From Bacteroidota bacterium (GTDB lineage Bacteria > Bacteroidota > Rhodothermia > Rhodothermales > Bin80), in contig JAPPGC010000029.1 in assembly GCA_028875125.1 (NCBI GenBank), positions 1-39,338 of the forward strand: 39,338 bases of DNA. Direction: 5' to 3'. Numbering within the stretch: position 1 is the stretch's first letter; each line of letters starts with the position of its first letter. Below the pieces are notes generated by a model that made no database searches, was not told the origin of the DNA, and was given only the letters and a program-made list of their open reading frames with translations. Positions 168 to 38,807 of this stretch are shown here, piece by piece. The position numbers and the translations under genes were made by a program.

Positions 168-235
168 AGAGAATACGACTACCTTACAACTCAAGCACTC
201 CGGTGCAACCAAAGGACGCACATATGGCTGAACCG

Positions 236-17226: not shown

Positions 17227-17526
17227 CTATCTCCACAACATCAGTGATATTAGCGCAAATTGGAGTGGAACAGCCACTGCAAACCCAAGCCAGGTGTTCT
17301 TTACTTCTCTGTTCTTCAAAGTTTCGGTGTAACCTCTTTCGAACATCGAACGCTCACCTTCCTCATATTTCGCAGACAAGCCAACAGAGACCTTGGGGGA
17401 ACGCAGGTATACAATCATTACTCCAATGAGGCCAAACAGGAATCCGGCCCAGAACCATTTCGTCACTGAAACAGAATTAGCCTCCAATTCGGCATCCTGA
17501 ATCGCAGAAGAATTAATGCTTGTCAT
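17227..17526 (-). CDS. Small two-span membrane protein, unknown function
   Basis: A 99-residue protein with two predicted transmembrane helices (about 22-41 and 79-98) joined by a charged loop containing a tyrosine- and glutamate-rich stretch (SAKYEEGERSMFERGYTETL). No family is recognised. The helix start KWFWAGFLFGLIGVMIVYLRSP, ending in a charged cap, looks like a genuine membrane protein and not a chance frame. A weak GAAGAAG lies about 8 nt before the ATG. It has no close neighbour on its strand. Confidence 0.6.
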   Translation of the reverse strand: MTSINSSAIQDAELEANSVSVTKWFWAGFLFGLIGVMIVYLRSPKVSVGLSAKYEEGERSMFERGYTETLKNREVKNTWLGFAVAVPLQFALISLMLWR

Positions 17527-18000
17527 GGAGAGACTTCTTCTTTGAATGAATCAATGAATCTTGTTAAACCCCTGAGTCAAAGGATTATTGAGAAATCTAA
17601 CTCTGGGATCTTCATTCTCATGATACACCTGAAGACCGAAATGGATTGGACTCGGCAACATTACCCCTACAAGACATCTGGTCATGCATCCCACAGTGCC
17701 ATGAACAAGGGGCTGGAGTCTCAAGTTCCTTGTCTCTGTGAAATAAAGATCCCTCAAAGGGTGAGGGTTCCCACATCGTGGGATGGGAAACCCGATTTTT
17801 GTATAACCTGCGTAGGTGTTGTTGTCTGCAGTATCGATGATGGGTTACTTGATGTCAGGGACCCCTGCCCTAACCGCGGATTGACTGCTGCACATGGTCC
17901 ACCAGCGGAGCATCCGTCACAACTAAGTATTCCGATGATAATTCAGGTTCGGGATGTCTAGACAGATTCTTGACAGCAGTCCGAAAATCCACAGCAGCTT
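17527..18000. other. Spacer without a recognised gene
   Basis: A plus-strand open frame (17542-17961) is present but its composition and sequence resemble no protein and it has no ribosome-binding site, so I do not call it. One compact hairpin, CCCAC-ATC-GTGGG, is at 17770-17782. The end of this stretch may hold the lost 5' end of the broken gene that follows. Confidence 0.3.
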
Positions 18001-18279
18001 TTGGCAGCACAGCTGCCAAACTCGAATCGTATCTTTAGACTTCGTCGCTACAATGGCTTAGGCCACGAACACACGAATCGCATTGAGGGTGAAGTATTTT
18101 ACGATTTCCATATCCATTACGCCACCCAACGGTATCAGGAATTAGGAATGAACGAAGATTCGTTCGCGGCTCGGACAGATCGCTATGGAGACTAAGAAGT
18201 CGATCTCATCTGCTCAGTCAACGATGGGAATTTCATAATTCCAGACAATAATCAGTTAGAGATATTCAGCAAGAATTAA
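18001..18279 (+). pseudogene. Small gene upstream of DUF1828 gene, broken by an in-frame TAA
   Basis: Reading from a TTG at 18001 gives a protein-like sequence with NRIFRLRRYNG, HEHTNRIEG and FYDFHIHYATQRYQELG, ending in TDRYGD. A TAA at 18193-18195 interrupts it, after which the same frame continues for 27 more codons (EVDLICSVNDGNFIIPDN...) and stops at 18277-18279, one base before the DUF1828 ATG. The tight junction and the uninterrupted flow of protein-like sequence show an original gene of about 95 or more codons, disabled by one nonsense change (probably from a Tyr codon). The family has no name I know; it pairs with DUF1828 genes as far as I recall. The 5' end is not certain. Confidence 0.7.
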
Positions 18280-18280
18280 G

Positions 18281-19054
18281 ATGATCTTCTCCGAGATAGA
18301 GCAATCGTTCAAGGAAAAAGTGTCTGACAAGGTTCGAATCTCTTCAGAGGGTATTGATCGGTACCGAGTTTTTACTCCATTTGTTTTTAATGATGGAGAT
18401 CATCTGGCAGTTGTACTACGGAAGTATGGTAGTCGAGTTGTACTTACCGATGAGGCTGATACCTATATGCACCTGACATACTCAATGAAAGAGAAAGACT
18501 TGCAAAGCGGTACTCGCTATGAGATCATATCCAATACTCTGTCAACTTTTGGGATTCAAGATGTAGATGGCGAGTTAATCCTTGAAGTGCCTGACCATCA
18601 ATATGGGGGTGCATTATTTTCTTTCATTCAGGCAATCCTGAAGATCTCTGATGTTTCATTCCTCACTCGAGAGTATGTCAGGTCAACATTCATGGAAGAC
18701 TTCAAGTCACTACTCTGTGAAACTGTAGATCAGAAACGCATAGTGTTTGACTGGAATGATCCAGTACGAGATCCAGAGGGAAAATATTCGGTCGATTGCC
18801 AAATTAATGGAATGCGTACTCCACTATATATCAGTGCGCTGAGTGGTGACAGTAAGACGAGGGATGCAACGATTGCGTTGCTGCAATTTGAAAAGTGGGG
18901 AATGCCATTTCAGTCAATGGCTATTTTTGAGAATCAGGAGGCGATTGGTCGCAGGGTACTTGCTAGATTCACGGATGTGTGTGACAAGCAGTTTTCTAGT
19001 TTGAAATCAAATCGGAAGCGCATCCAGAAATTTTTGCTTGAGAATCTGAACTAA
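18281..19054 (+). CDS. DUF1828-domain protein
   Basis: A 257-residue soluble protein. The N-terminal 90 residues match the DUF1828 pattern: a short helix, then FVFNDGDHLAVVLRKYGSRVVLTDEADTYMHL in two adjoining segments, then GTRYEIISNTLSTFGI. The remainder, with VRSTFMEDFKSLL and DATIALLQFEKWGMPF, is the usual C-terminal part of this family. Function is unknown; members often sit in accessory regions, sometimes next to small partner genes. The gene starts one base after the end of the broken upstream gene, so it was probably translated by coupling to it, and its expression may now be reduced. Confidence 0.82.
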   Translation: MIFSEIEQSFKEKVSDKVRISSEGIDRYRVFTPFVFNDGDHLAVVLRKYGSRVVLTDEADTYMHLTYSMKEKDLQSGTRYEIISNTLSTFGIQDVDGELILEVPDHQYGGALFSFIQAILKISDVSFLTREYVRSTFMEDFKSLLCETVDQKRIVFDWNDPVRDPEGKYSVDCQINGMRTPLYISALSGDSKTRDATIALLQFEKWGMPFQSMAIFENQEAIGRRVLARFTDVCDKQFSSLKSNRKRIQKFLLENLN

Positions 19055-19065
19055 ATTTTGTGCAA

Positions 19066-19094
19066 TCGGCGTTGCGCTTCCAAGGTAACGCCGA
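19066..19094. terminator. Hairpin downstream of the DUF1828 gene
   Basis: A perfect 8-bp inverted repeat, TCGGCGTT with AACGCCGA, extendable to about 10 bp with one wobble, sits 12 nt after the DUF1828 stop. There is no T run after it, so it may be a pause or mRNA-end structure in place of a classic intrinsic terminator. Nothing else was seen in the 240-nt spacer. Confidence 0.45.
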
Positions 19095-19293
19095 CGACCT
19101 CCGCAGAAACAGCTTGTTGCCGTTCTTTTGCAACCGAATGCGTCGTGAGGCTTGGTATACTTCCTAGTAATGGATCTGTGTAAGAAACTTCAAAGGGAAC
19201 CAAAGAGATAGGCCCTCAACACAGAACCTGATCGGCGCATCCTAAACGAAATTTGCACGTAGGAAATTTTAACATGCATATCAAAGTTTAAAA

Positions 19294-19560
19294 ATGAATC
19301 ACCGAGTCATATCCTCTGCATTGTTTGTTCTAAGTGCAATGTTCTTGACAGGATGTGGGGATAGTCTTGTTGAGATGGCGATGGCCTGGGAATTCCTCGG
19401 ATGCTGTGGTTTGATCATACTAATACTGGATATTATCGCCATCGTTGAGATTGCCGGAAGTTCACGTGATACGACCGCCAAATTCATCTGGATTATCTTC
19501 ATTGTTCTCGCTCCGTTCATGGGATTGATTGCTTACTACGTATTTGCAGATCGTTCATAG
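19294..19560 (+). CDS. Small lipoprotein with PLDc_N-like membrane domain
   Basis: An 88-residue protein with a signal peptide and lipobox (FLTGC, Cys21) followed by two hydrophobic segments (about 36-53 and 65-84). The second half, DIIAIVEIAGSSRDTTAKFIWIIFIVLAPFMGLIAYY read in pieces, matches the PLDc_N family found at the N terminus of cardiolipin synthases and as free small proteins. No phospholipase catalytic domain is attached. Its role is unknown. Confidence 0.75.
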   Translation: MNHRVISSALFVLSAMFLTGCGDSLVEMAMAWEFLGCCGLIILILDIIAIVEIAGSSRDTTAKFIWIIFIVLAPFMGLIAYYVFADRS

Positions 19561-36416: not shown

Positions 36417-36941
36417 TCACTTCCTTTCGGAACTGAGATTCTCTGGTTCAAGTGATTCCCGACTCAGCCTTTCAAGGGTTGAAGCTATTTCTGCTAACTC
36501 TCCCGTCGTTAGATGTACCTCAACTATGATGTTGTTTTTTCTAGGTATCAGTGGCACCATTTCCCACGCTTCCCACCGGGCTCCATTGGTCAACACCGCG
36601 TAGCGCGCTCCGATTTCCGTTGCGTATCCAGACGCTTGTCGCCGGTCAGTTTCCCTCGGGCCTGCACCCGCAGGCTTTGCTTCTACAACAGCAAGGACGC
36701 CGCCTGACGACGACATGAGAACGTAGTCTACCCTGTTGTTCTTACCAGCCCAATGTTCCAACCGGACCTGTAGTGGATCCCTGACATTCCAGCCCAGTGC
36801 GGCCATTATAACGTCTACGACAAGCATTCGTGTCGCCGTTTCGTTTCCGGCGAGGTATTCGTGATGGCCCTTTAGGGTCTCGCGAGCTTCCGCGATGCTC
36901 TTCTCAAGTAGGGACATCATCCTATCCTTTGTTACAGCCAA
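36417..36941 (-). CDS. Stand-alone PD-(D/E)xK nuclease, HsdR N-terminal-like
   Basis: A 174-residue protein matching the N-terminal nuclease domain of type I restriction R subunits. Visible motif elements are NETATRMLVVDVIMAALGW (33-51), RVDYVL with Asp72, VVEAKP with Glu87 and Lys89 (the ExK), and QASGYATEIGARYAVLTNG with Gln102 (101-120). No helicase domain follows. The start is TTG at 36941, supported by a very strong ribosome-binding site (GGAGGAGGG, six bases upstream) that lies inside the last codons of the DUF6527 gene. It is the last gene of the ubiquitin-like operon, and I infer it to be the effector. Confidence 0.85.
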   Translation of the reverse strand: MAVTKDRMMSLLEKSIAEARETLKGHHEYLAGNETATRMLVVDVIMAALGWNVRDPLQVRLEHWAGKNNRVDYVLMSSSGGVLAVVEAKPAGAGPRETDRRQASGYATEIGARYAVLTNGARWEAWEMVPLIPRKNNIIVEVHLTTGELAEIASTLERLSRESLEPENLSSERK

Positions 36942-36944
36942 GTA

Positions 36945-37385
36945 TTACCCTCCTCCCCACCTTACCAAGGAACGAAGCATTTGCCAAATTGGTTTCTTCA
37001 AATTGCACCTGACTATCCTTCTAGGCAGCTCCTCTATCAGTGCATCGGGTCCCTTCTGATAATAGCCGTCACGCCGCGTCTTGGCCTCTTTCCGTACTGA
37101 AATGACCTCGGTTTCAGAGAAGACTCGCGCCCACCGAACGCTCCCTTTTTCCACCCAGTAATGCGACCTGCAAGGAAAGCTCCAGTTTCCAATTGATGGC
37201 GCCAATGATACCGAGTCGCCATCGTATGTGAGTTCCCATTCGGCCGGGCCAAGAGGTGTCACCACCTCTTCTCCACACCCACAGGCACATCGGTGAACGA
37301 CGGTACCAAAACGAAATGACACATAAAGGACGTTGTCGTCCAATTGTTTTGGTATGTAGTCCACAAATTCGTGGCGCAATTCCAT
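36945..37385 (-). CDS. DUF6527 protein (predicted Ubl-processing or peptidase component)
   Basis: A 146-residue protein with the DUF6527 hallmarks: EFVDYIPKQL at the start, LYVSFRFGTVVHRCACGCG with Cys33, Cys35 and Cys37, then PLGPAEW, LAPSIGNWSFPCRSHYWV with Ser64, Cys72, Ser74, His75 and Tyr76. The Cys residues look like metal ligands. As I recall, recent biochemical work on Bub operons treats this family as a Ubl-specific peptidase; this was not checked. The last residues WGGG are encoded by the ribosome-binding site of the next gene. It starts 23 nt after the E1 gene. Confidence 0.88.
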   Translation of the reverse strand: MELRHEFVDYIPKQLDDNVLYVSFRFGTVVHRCACGCGEEVVTPLGPAEWELTYDGDSVSLAPSIGNWSFPCRSHYWVEKGSVRWARVFSETEVISVRKEAKTRRDGYYQKGPDALIEELPRRIVRCNLKKPIWQMLRSLVRWGGG

Positions 37386-37408
37386 TGGAAATGGTCTTTA
37401 TTCCTCGA

Positions 37409-38560
37409 TTACTTATTGCTCATTTGATTTCCGTCGATCGTGTAATTGCTCCGGGTTTCTCGACCAAAGTCCTGATAGAACCCACGATGCTTCTTCCATC
37501 GGATCACCGCTAAAGCTGCGTTCAGAGCGTTCAGTTCTACAATCTGAACGTTTCTTTCGTACTCCCCTACGTTCCGTAGTCCGTTCTCGTCACTTTGCAC
37601 AACCGAGCTCTTCAGTGTCTCGCAGAAGCTCGTTCTGATGATCCCAAACAGTTTGTCCTCCGTCCTCTCAATTCCCATTCCGACGTCGACGAACGCCACC
37701 CCCATGTTTTTTAGTTCCGGCAGCAGCCACCCTCTGGTCTCGTTGTTATCAACAGCAACGAAGACAAAGTCAAGGGCAGCAAGCACCTTAACATTACTGG
37801 GCTTAACATCGAATCCGTGCACGATGACACCACTCCTCATCTTCTCATATCTCTCCTTGTACAGTTGGACCTTTGTCAGATTTCTCTCAAGGTCCTCAAT
37901 TGTCGATGCGCCCGGTGCGCGGAACGCGTTATGCTGCGCAAAACGATCACCGTCAAACAAATGGATCTCCGCAACACGCGTTTTACTGACGAAATCCAAG
38001 ATGTACGATCCGGTGCCTCCAAGCCCAACTATGCCAATCTTGTCGTTGGAAAGACTCTCGTTCAGCCGCGTTATACCTACACGGCTTGATGCAGTCTCCA
38101 TGAACACGAAGGGGTCATCCGGGTCCGCCGAGGACACCAGTTTTCCCTTAAATACGATGGCGATAGGATCGATTCGTCTTGCACACCGCCCCATCACTTG
38201 CGCATAGTGCGTCAGTTTGTGATGGTAGTCCGTGTAGGATCCTGTAACCGGCTTGGCCGAGAAGCGGTGATCTACCCATAAGCCTACAGCAAGTTCTTGG
38301 CGATTACTGCTGTTCCGCAAGGCTTCAATCGGCGCACCCTGATCATCGCAGGGGTATTCGCCCGCAAAGTATATTGTGTGATCTGGCGGTGGACCTGCTT
38401 CAATCAATGAACAAACGAGCTTGCCATACTTCACGGCTCGGCTGCTTGTAACGTACGGGACGTCATGTAGAACCAAATATCCAGAGCGGACCTCTAGATG
38501 GTAGCCTTCTTCTATGAGACGCTTGAGGTCTTCCCTATGATTGATCAGTTCTCGTGACAT
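37409..38560 (-). CDS. ThiF/E1-like Ubl-activating enzyme with N-terminal fused domain
   Basis: A 383-residue protein. Residues about 172-350 form the adenylation domain: the nucleotide loop GIVGLGGTGS (176-185), Asp203 and Asp205 in LFDGDRF, Asn211 and Arg214, Lys230, and Asp271 with Arg276 in VDNNETRGW. The crossover-loop region TSFCETLKSS has the only nearby cysteine, Cys313, with Ser311, Ser318 and Ser319 as other candidate acceptors. There are no CxxC zinc pairs. The N-terminal 170 residues, with VDHRFSAKPVTG and YTDYHHKLTHYAQ, resemble DUF6791, and may stand in for a separate E2. It overlaps the Ubl gene by 26 nt. Confidence 0.9.
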   Translation of the reverse strand: MSRELINHREDLKRLIEEGYHLEVRSGYLVLHDVPYVTSSRAVKYGKLVCSLIEAGPPPDHTIYFAGEYPCDDQGAPIEALRNSSNRQELAVGLWVDHRFSAKPVTGSYTDYHHKLTHYAQVMGRCARRIDPIAIVFKGKLVSSADPDDPFVFMETASSRVGITRLNESLSNDKIGIVGLGGTGSYILDFVSKTRVAEIHLFDGDRFAQHNAFRAPGASTIEDLERNLTKVQLYKERYEKMRSGVIVHGFDVKPSNVKVLAALDFVFVAVDNNETRGWLLPELKNMGVAFVDVGMGIERTEDKLFGIIRTSFCETLKSSVVQSDENGLRNVGEYERNVQIVELNALNAALAVIRWKKHRGFYQDFGRETRSNYTIDGNQMSNK

Positions 38561-38807
38561 TTACTATCGTTCCGTCACGAACCTTAAGCGCTTGCCCTTC
38601 GTCCAACTCTCCCTCCGAGATTCGGCCACCAGCCTCTCGAAACGTGATTGTAAATACGATCAGCGGGCCCCTCGCCGGATTGGCAAAGGCCAGGTCAACC
38701 AGCTCGTCAAACGACAGTTCATCCTGCTCGACTGACTCTGGCCGCCCGTTGACGGTTATTGAAAACGTCTTATCGTCTGGCTGATCTAAGTGGTTTCTCT
38801 TGTCCAT
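38535..38807 (-). CDS. Ubiquitin-like protein of the multiubiquitin family, single domain
   Basis: A 90-residue protein. After a 13-residue polar tail, residues 14-88 form one beta-grasp domain: FSITVNGRPESVEQDELSF, DELVDLAFANPARGPLIVF, FREAGGRISEGELDEG and LKVRDGTIVNVTRTDQS. The ending VTRTDQS matches the family's conserved TD-x-S tail; there is no diglycine, so the last residue used for conjugation would be set by trimming or is unusual. The ATG at 38807 has GAGGG eight bases upstream. It is first of four genes, and the E1 gene overlaps its end. Confidence 0.9.
   Translation of the reverse strand: MDKRNHLDQPDDKTFSITVNGRPESVEQDELSFDELVDLAFANPARGPLIVFTITFREAGGRISEGELDEGQALKVRDGTIVNVTRTDQS

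What the first reader, a model, noticed from the sequence alone, without database searches (positions are those of the whole stretch)
18001..19054. DUF1828 gene behind a partner disabled by one stop codon
Seen: a protein-like frame is interrupted by a single TAA (18193-18195) but resumes in frame for 27 codons and ends one base before the DUF1828 ATG. The exact junction shows a former two-gene unit. Inferred: the pair may be a two-component accessory system (for instance toxin-antitoxin or defence), with one member lost here.
Basis: partly seen in the sequence, partly recalled or inferred. Interest (0 to 1): 0.55.

Follow-up and report, generated by a model that had tools for sequence, protein, structure and literature searches.

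The report
Broken half of a two-gene cassette
An intact gene (DUF1828) sits behind the truncated wreck of its usual partner (DUF6978); together they form a two-gene unit carried by phages, plasmids and bacteria that is listed only as a candidate anti-phage system, and the partner is the half that tends to get lost.

Summary
The TAA at 18193-18195, the 27 in-frame codons behind it and the one-base junction to the DUF1828 ATG (18281) are real. "Disabled by one stop codon" is wrong: the upstream frame aligns only from residue 68 of a 157-residue partner, and a 96%-identical congener that lacks the segment leaves only 76 nt before it, so about 41 codons or more, with the start, are missing. The partner is DUF6978-like. 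In 296 phylum genomes, 22 of 25 DUF6978 places have DUF1828 directly downstream; phages, plasmids and viral contigs carry the pair too. PADLOC's candidate defence pair PDC-M24 (A and B) matches other such pairs; the window's DUF1828 matches B, but the nearest intact partners do not match A. Of 78 places classified, 16 have only the partner broken and 1 only DUF1828. Predicted DUF1828 joins a type III secretion chaperone-like domain to a PD-(D/E)XK-like domain without the canonical (D/E)xK; the partner has near-invariant His/Asn residues and no usable match among solved folds. Best reading: a toxin-antitoxin-like, probably anti-phage cassette, DUF6978 the effector and DUF1828 its chaperone-like antidote, with the effector lost here. 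Function is inferred, untested.

The parts
17922..19178 (.). Accessory segment present in the window and absent from the 96%-identical congener G004, which has about 139 nt of other sequence there
   Evidence: blastn window vs L118: 9335-17921 and 19179-22954 align at 96-97%, nothing between; junction sequences printed (left edge soft)
17998..18279 (+). 3' remnant of the DUF6978-like partner gene (equivalent to residues 68-157 of intact L016, plus a short tail), no start, closed by two TAA
   Evidence: tblastn E 3.8e-39 to L003; 64% identity over q68-157, 1 stop inside; L019 homologue matches PF22398 above cut-off
18193..18195 (+). In-frame TAA inside the remnant
18070..18117 (+). Family His/Asn positions kept in the remnant: HxN (18070-18078) and HxH (18109-18117)
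   Evidence: H92, N94, H105, H107 of L016 numbering; 32, 29, 33 and 33 of 33 reference partners; window codons read
18281..19054 (+). Intact DUF1828 gene, 257 aa
   Evidence: PF08861 E 2.1e-24; PADLOC PDC-M24B E 1.2e-20
18281..18658 (+). DUF1828 N-terminal domain (residues 1-126), type III secretion chaperone-like fold
   Evidence: VIA-align: Spa15 2xga_B Z 10.3, rmsd 2.5, 110 aligned; model pLDDT 87.5, pTM 0.49
18680..19051 (+). DUF1828 C-terminal domain (residues 134-257), PD-(D/E)XK-like fold, canonical (D/E)xK not seen in the third strand
   Evidence: VIA-align: PspGI 3bm3_B Z 10.2, rmsd 2.7, 120 aligned; Cdn1 8z4i_B Z 9.4; 0 of 70 with (D/E)xK there

Best explanation
SHOWN: 17922-19178 is a small accessory segment of the type [DUF6978 partner]-[DUF1828], in which the partner is reduced to a 3' remnant and DUF1828 is open. 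INFERRED: intact pairs work as toxin-antitoxin-like, probably anti-phage units carried by temperate phages, plasmids and bacteria. DUF6978 is the harmful effector, an enzyme whose site would be the near-invariant K18, R84, HxN and HxH. DUF1828 is its antidote: the chaperone-like N-terminal domain would hold the effector, and the PD-(D/E)XK-like C-terminal domain, probably not a working nuclease, would bind nucleic acid for autoregulation or sensing. In the window the effector has been lost and the harmless antidote gene has not yet decayed.
For: Linkage: 22 of 25 PF22398 places in 296 genomes have PF08861 directly downstream on the same strand; same order with overlap or a short gap in Pseudomonas phage 5371, Lj965, pRSB223, Javan197, TMW 1.1365 P3 and the six viral-contig loci. 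Candidate defence listing: PDC-M24A matches the DUF6978 and PDC-M24B the DUF1828 proteins of pRSB223 and Lj965; the window protein matches PDC-M24B. Asymmetric loss: of 78 places, 48 both open, 16 partner-only broken, 1 DUF1828-only broken, 4 both broken, 3 DUF1828 without partner found, 6 edge or unclear; 16 of 17 gives a one-sided binomial p of 1.4e-4, although the partner is the shorter gene. Candidate active site: H105 and H107 in 33 of 33 partners, H92, K18 and R84 in 32. DUF1828 domains; (D/E)xK absent from the third-strand region in 70 of 70. Position: between repressor-type genes and integrase in Lj965 and Javan197. Literature: a DUF3037-DUF1829 protein is the non-kinase half of the validated defence system DS-6/HipAD and was modelled as antitoxin-like and DNA-binding (PMC13092281, passages seen).
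Against: No toxicity or protection datum was found for this pair. One counter-example (G259b) has DUF1828 broken and the partner open. G012b has a broken DUF1828 and an open partner frame that I read as out of register; counting it against gives 16 of 18, p 6.6e-4. G314b's partner also runs into a contig start; without it 15 of 16, p 2.6e-4. With the partner as bait the asymmetry is only 5 to 1 among 22, 4 to 1 without G314b. Places are not phylogenetically independent, some lesions are small (viral L088 loses 18 codons) and several were judged by eye. D172 of DUF1828 is kept in 67 of 70 and a K/R stands about 20 residues behind it in 63 of 70, so a non-canonical nuclease site is not excluded. 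In the C-domain fold list, receiver domains and other unrelated enzymes follow at Z 7-8. The nearest intact partners scanned (L016, L019, L020, L022) get no PADLOC hit at E up to 1. The window DUF1828 may simply be too recently orphaned to have decayed: dN to G003 is 0.213 for DUF1828 and 0.23 for the remnant, dS saturated.
Confidence: 0.45

Rival explanations
1. Roles reversed: DUF1828 is a nuclease effector (PD-(D/E)XK fold, like the CRISPR ancillary nucleases Can2/Cdn1 or restriction enzymes) and DUF6978 is its sensor, activator or antidote.
For: C-terminal domain aligns to PspGI (Z 10.2), Cdn1 (Z 9.4) and Can2 (Z 8.6); Foldseek's best hit is Cdn1, E 4.2e-3, probability 0.99. D172 in 67 of 70 and an acidic helix position (E139/D140) are conserved; K or R at window positions 189-193 in 63 of 70, ExxxK near strand 3 in 10 of 70.
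Against: (D/E)xK in the third-strand region in 0 of 70. If DUF6978 were the antidote, 16 places with only DUF6978 broken would be hard to explain; if it were an activator, DUF1828 should decay too.
Confidence: 0.22
2. The pair is a lysogeny or repression accessory of temperate phages, not a defence or toxin-antitoxin unit, domesticated or stranded in bacterial genomes.
For: Location near cI (one small ORF between) in Pseudomonas phage 5371 and between repressor-type genes and integrase in Lj965 and Javan197.
Against: That region is also where phages carry cargo (general knowledge); Lj965 has a gene annotated 'superinfection exclusion' close by. The pair also sits on plasmid pRSB223 and, in the window, among ORFs that I read as housekeeping-type with no phage genes noticed (by eye).
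Confidence: 0.15
3. DUF1828 has a job of its own and DUF6978 is a dispensable accessory; loss of the partner is neutral drift.
For: 3 places hold DUF1828 with no partner found (G014, G029b, G122); DUF1828 is open in the 16 places with a broken partner; dN 0.016 vs dS 0.107 for DUF1828 between G003 and G005.
Against: 22 of 25 DUF6978 places are coupled to DUF1828 and the order is kept in phages, plasmids and several phyla, which suggests joint function.
Confidence: 0.16
4. One reading: an intact gene with one wrong or mutated base (sequencing error or single nonsense change).
For: Homology continues gap-free on both sides of the TAA.
Against: Residues 1-67 and the start have no match found and no room in the segment; no other match to the partner in the genome.
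Confidence: 0.02

Closest known systems
PDC-M24 (PADLOC-DB candidate phage-defence pair, models PDC-M24A and PDC-M24B)
   Same: Two genes, DUF6978 (A) then DUF1828 (B); pRSB223 and Lj965 pairs match both models; the window DUF1828 matches B at E 1.2e-20
   Different: Nearest intact partners of the window type (L016, L019, L020, L022) give no A hit at E up to 1; the window DUF1828 lacks the Pfam DUF1829 match seen in pRSB223, Lj965 and pAOF1; the window copy is broken
Pfam DUF6978 (PF22398) and DUF1828 (PF08861)
   Same: L019 partner over the DUF6978 cut-off (30.5 vs 29.6 bits), L022 and L016 below it; window protein far over the DUF1828 cut-off
   Different: The window remnant itself gives no Pfam match; L020 and L021 partners give no DUF6978 match
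HipAD / DS-6 (HipA-type kinase plus DUF3037-DUF1829 protein), passages of PMC13092281
   Same: DUF1829 is found behind DUF1828 in pRSB223, Lj965 and pAOF1, so the non-kinase protein may be a distant cousin
   Different: No kinase match in the 8 partners scanned with Pfam; no DUF1829 or DUF3037 match at E up to 1 in the window protein
TumE-TumA toxin-antitoxin superfamily (PF20126, DUF6516; PMC10584680, passages seen)
   Same: In the five plasmid loci viewed DUF6516 is the first of two genes, though the paper says it is mostly the second; the paper describes an alpha+beta fold without confident PDB match, as for the DUF6978 model
   Different: hhalign of DUF6978 against six TumE proteins is not significant

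Membership tests
PDC-M24 (PADLOC) | B protein (DUF1828-type) | tested here: met
   E 1.2e-20, residues 8-146
PDC-M24 (PADLOC) | A protein (DUF6978-type) by PADLOC model | tested here: not met
   Nearest intact partners L016, L019, L020, L022: 0 hits at E up to 1. More distant partners do match: phage 5371 E 1.2e-8, viral L091 E 0.0016, pRSB223 E 4.9e-52. The window remnant itself was not scanned with PADLOC
PDC-M24 (PADLOC) | A directly upstream of B, both intact | tested here: not met
   Order and spacing kept, but the partner lacks its 5' part and holds a stop
Pfam DUF6978 | Profile match over gathering score | tested here: inconclusive
   Remnant: no match; of five intact homologues scanned, L019 over, L022 and L016 below, L020 and L021 none
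Pfam DUF1828 | Profile match over gathering score | tested here: met
   86.1 bits vs 22
Type II toxin-antitoxin system | Two adjacent co-directional genes, overlapping or nearly so | tested here: met
   In relatives; in the window only as remnant plus gene
Type II toxin-antitoxin system | One protein toxic, neutralised by the other | not testable with these tools
   Only indirect: asymmetric loss
HipAD / DS-6 | HipA-family kinase partner | tested here: not met
   No kinase match in the 8 partners scanned with Pfam
HipAD / DS-6 | DUF1829 in the second protein | tested here: not met
   No DUF1829 at E up to 1 in the window protein
TumE | Profile similarity to PF20126 | tested here: inconclusive
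   hhalign probability 0.9% and 0.3% with only six TumE rows; TumE structure not predicted here (both jobs used)
PD-(D/E)XK nuclease | Fold | tested here: met
   Predicted domain 134-257: PspGI Z 10.2, rmsd 2.7 over 120; Cdn1 Z 9.4; Foldseek best E 4.2e-3, none at E 0.001
PD-(D/E)XK nuclease | Catalytic D...(D/E)xK | tested here: inconclusive
   Strand-2 Asp D172 67 of 70; (D/E)xK in the strand-3 region 0 of 70, K/R at 189-193 in 63 of 70: a displaced Lys is possible

The most novel reading that the evidence does not exclude
DUF6978-DUF1828 is a widespread toxin-antitoxin-like anti-phage family with an undescribed effector fold (HxN/HxH site) and an antidote built from a type III secretion chaperone-like domain fused to a nuclease-derived, catalytically dead DNA-binding domain; bacteria repeatedly keep the antidote after losing the effector, perhaps because a solitary DUF1828 protects against the same cassette arriving on a phage or plasmid.
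Probability: 0.3. Interest if true: 0.65.

Novelty: new variant of a known kind. Interest (0 to 1): 0.4.

Why it matters
The pair is found in several phyla, sits in the lysogeny region of temperate phages and is flagged as a defence candidate; two searches of the open-licence library found no paper naming PDC-M24. The domain predictions and the one-sided pattern of loss give a concrete hypothesis about which protein is the effector and which the antidote, testable with two plasmids. The window locus itself is a minor, broken example.

Tried and rejected
Frameshift-tolerant search for the missing N-terminal half in 17501-17998: best alignment 41, shuffles mean 39.8, 24 of 60 at or above. The short match 'DRFLTAVRKS' (17961-17990) to partner residues about 50-59 was tempting but scores E 3, so it is not claimed.

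TumE kinship of the partner: hhalign not significant (the comparison of TumE with the DUF1828 alignment scored alike). Solved relatives by sequence: none for the partner, one chance-level hit for DUF1828 (E 0.15). Solved folds for the partner model: Foldseek best E 1.1, VIA-align best Z 5.0, not usable; BFVD best A0A8S5NGZ0, E 2.5e-3, uncharacterised.

NCBIfam gave nothing useful for window or relatives. Direct repeats in 17700-19400: none of 12 nt or more, so no transposition signature seen. Plasmid search with the window protein: 2 partial hits only. Codon tests: dS saturated between G000 and G003, so no lineage-specific claim about selection on the solitary DUF1828. Papers holding DUF1828 or DUF6978 only in passing (PMC10821479, PMC7970244, PMC13210130; passages seen) said nothing on function; PMC11514479 passages show only that 'PDC' stands for phage defence candidate; the other papers were seen as listings only.

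Full report
WHAT IS THERE. A 257-codon ORF at 18281-19054 matches DUF1828 (E 2.1e-24). The frame before it has TAA at 18193-18195, runs 27 more codons to a TAA at 18277-18279, and one base later the DUF1828 ATG follows.

THE FRAME IS A GENE REMNANT. tblastn of the upstream frame (X at the stop) found relatives upstream of DUF1828 in 17 of the 25 other loci searched; three pairs of loci come from the same contigs and are counted twice. Intact ones are about 155-172 residues. Pfam calls this family DUF6978: of five scanned, L019 is over the cut-off, L022 and L016 below it, L020 and L021 unmatched; homologues from phage 5371, Lj965 and pRSB223 are over it. The window remnant gives no Pfam match.

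NOT ONE STOP CODON. Homology starts at residue 68 of L016 (window 17998) and runs gap-free to residue 157. The frame is closed just upstream. The N-terminal half could not be found above chance. Congener G004 matches the window at 96-97% up to 17921 and from 19179 and has nothing of 17922-19178; the last 90 nt or so before the left edge look less alike, so the edge is soft. On that edge 76 nt remain where 201 nt of coding sequence belong: about 125 nt or more, including the start, are missing. Searches with the L016 partner and with PF22398 find no other copy in the genome. A wrong base call at the TAA would therefore not give back a gene.

THE SITE IS VARIABLE. Congener G008 has about 7.3 kb of other DNA between the same flanks, with long ORFs that I read as WD40-like and subtilase-like (by eye, not scanned). 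In the 11.6-19 kb fetched around the pair in G003, G005, G002 and G012 only the pair itself aligns to the window, so it lies elsewhere there. No direct repeats of 12 nt or more were seen in 17700-19400.

THE PAIR ELSEWHERE. In 296 phylum genomes PF22398 has 25 places at E up to 0.001; 22 have PF08861 directly downstream on the same strand. The other three are a contig edge, a place 166 nt from a contig end, and a weak match below the cut-off. Conversely 22 of 50 DUF1828 places have a PF22398 match upstream; of the other 28 I looked at 14: 10 have a whole DUF6978-like ORF below the cut-off upstream, 3 a piece of one, 1 (G093) none there (a tail was seen). Six viral-contig loci, Pseudomonas phage 5371 near cI, Lactobacillus prophage Lj965 between repressor-type genes and superinfection exclusion/integrase, Streptococcus phage Javan197 between repressor and integrase, a Latilactobacillus phage, a Streptococcus satellite phage with an unannotated partner frame and plasmids pRSB223 and pAOF1 carry it. 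PADLOC's PDC-M24A and PDC-M24B models correspond to these two proteins. Two library searches found no paper naming PDC-M24.

WHO IS LOST. I classified 78 places: 48 both open; 16 partner-only broken (window, G005, G002, G013, L018, L026, viral L088, G278a, G062, G282a, G130, G213, G221, G097, G314b, G255b); 1 DUF1828-only broken (G259b); 4 both broken (G012b, G259a, G241, G093); 3 DUF1828 without a partner found (G014, G029b, G122); 6 set aside for contig edges or doubt (G147, G266b, G205, G012a, G147 orphan, G097 edge piece). Most calls rest on the table; G012b, G259b, G278a, G097, G221, G255b, G282a, G093 and G130 were also read by eye. Reference proteins were picked as open frames, so 'open' is by construction for those. 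16 of 17 gives p 1.4e-4 (0.5 each) or 2.4e-6 weighted by length; counting G012b as a DUF1828-only loss, 16 of 18, p 6.6e-4. G314b's partner holds a stop but also runs to a contig start, as G012a's does, which I set aside; without G314b it is 15 of 16, p 2.6e-4, and with G012b against as well 15 of 17, p 1.2e-3. Among the 22 places found with DUF6978 as bait: 5 partner-only (4 without G314b), 1 DUF1828-only, 14 both open, 2 other. Places are related and bait choice matters, so this is suggestive rather than proof.

STRUCTURE. Partner model (L016, 13 sequences): pLDDT 90.9, pTM 0.85; no usable PDB match. Over 33 reference partners H105 and H107 are invariant; K18, R84 and H92 are in 32 and N94 in 29; the four His/Asn positions are kept in the window remnant. 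DUF1828 model (16 sequences): pLDDT 87.5, pTM 0.49, so the domains are better determined than their arrangement. Residues 1-126 align to type III secretion chaperones (Spa15 Z 10.3, rmsd 2.5, 110 aligned; InvB Z 8.5; ExsC Z 8.0), residues 134-257 to PD-(D/E)XK enzymes (PspGI Z 10.2, rmsd 2.7, 120 aligned; Cdn1 Z 9.4; Can2 Z 8.6). Unrelated folds such as receiver domains follow at Z 7-8 for the C-domain, Foldseek itself gave nothing at E 0.001 (best Cdn1, 4.2e-3), and a shared fold shows no function. Over 70 open DUF1828 proteins D40 and D57 are invariant and D172 is in 67; (D/E)xK in the third-strand region is in 0 of 70, ExxxK in 10 of 70, and a K/R at window positions 189-193 in 63 of 70.

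MECHANISM. Best reading: a toxin-antitoxin-like two-gene unit, DUF6978 the effector and DUF1828 the antidote. Shown: linkage, mobile contexts, candidate-defence listing, asymmetric loss, predicted folds. Inferred: toxicity, neutralisation, DNA binding, anti-phage role. Support from outside: DUF1829, seen behind DUF1828 in pRSB223, Lj965 and pAOF1, is in the non-kinase protein of the validated system DS-6/HipAD, which its authors modelled as antitoxin-like and DNA-binding (PMC13092281, passages seen). Rivals: DUF1828 as nuclease effector, a lysogeny accessory, an independent DUF1828.

KNOWN OR NEW. The pair kind is known as a candidate (PDC-M24). The window belongs to a divergent branch: B matched, A not matched by the nearest intact partners, no DUF1829 match. 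The locus itself is an ordinary decayed accessory cassette; the interest lies in the family.

Noticed in passing
window 36417-38807 (- strand): Gene run with Multi_ubiq (89 aa), DUF6791-ThiF (383 aa), DUF6527 (146 aa) and an HSDR_N-like protein (174 aa): a ubiquitin-like conjugation-type cluster at the contig's right side.
   Followed up: partly
G008:C71, L119:1330-8640: About 7.3 kb of other DNA (WD40-like and subtilase-like long ORFs, read by eye) occupies the site where the window has the pair and G004 has about 139 nt: a variable site.
   Followed up: partly
L015 (G005) vs L016 (G003), upstream of DUF1828: G005 lacks the partner's first codons; in the L016 stretch printed GCAACTGGGA stands at both ends of what is missing, which suggests a deletion between short repeats (by eye).
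   Followed up: no
L018 2884-3765: Candidatus Brocadia: the first 34 partner residues run directly in frame into DUF1828, making a fused open frame. G241 has another fusion with both genes shortened.
   Followed up: no
L149:2044-2502 and L029:2558-2992: Open DUF6978-type frames not annotated as such in the satellite phage Javan357 and plasmid pAOF1 records.
   Followed up: partly
L136 (G255:C49), upstream of DUF1828: Only the partner's last residues remain; frames that I read as a RelE/ParE-type pair lie in its place (by eye, not scanned).
   Followed up: no
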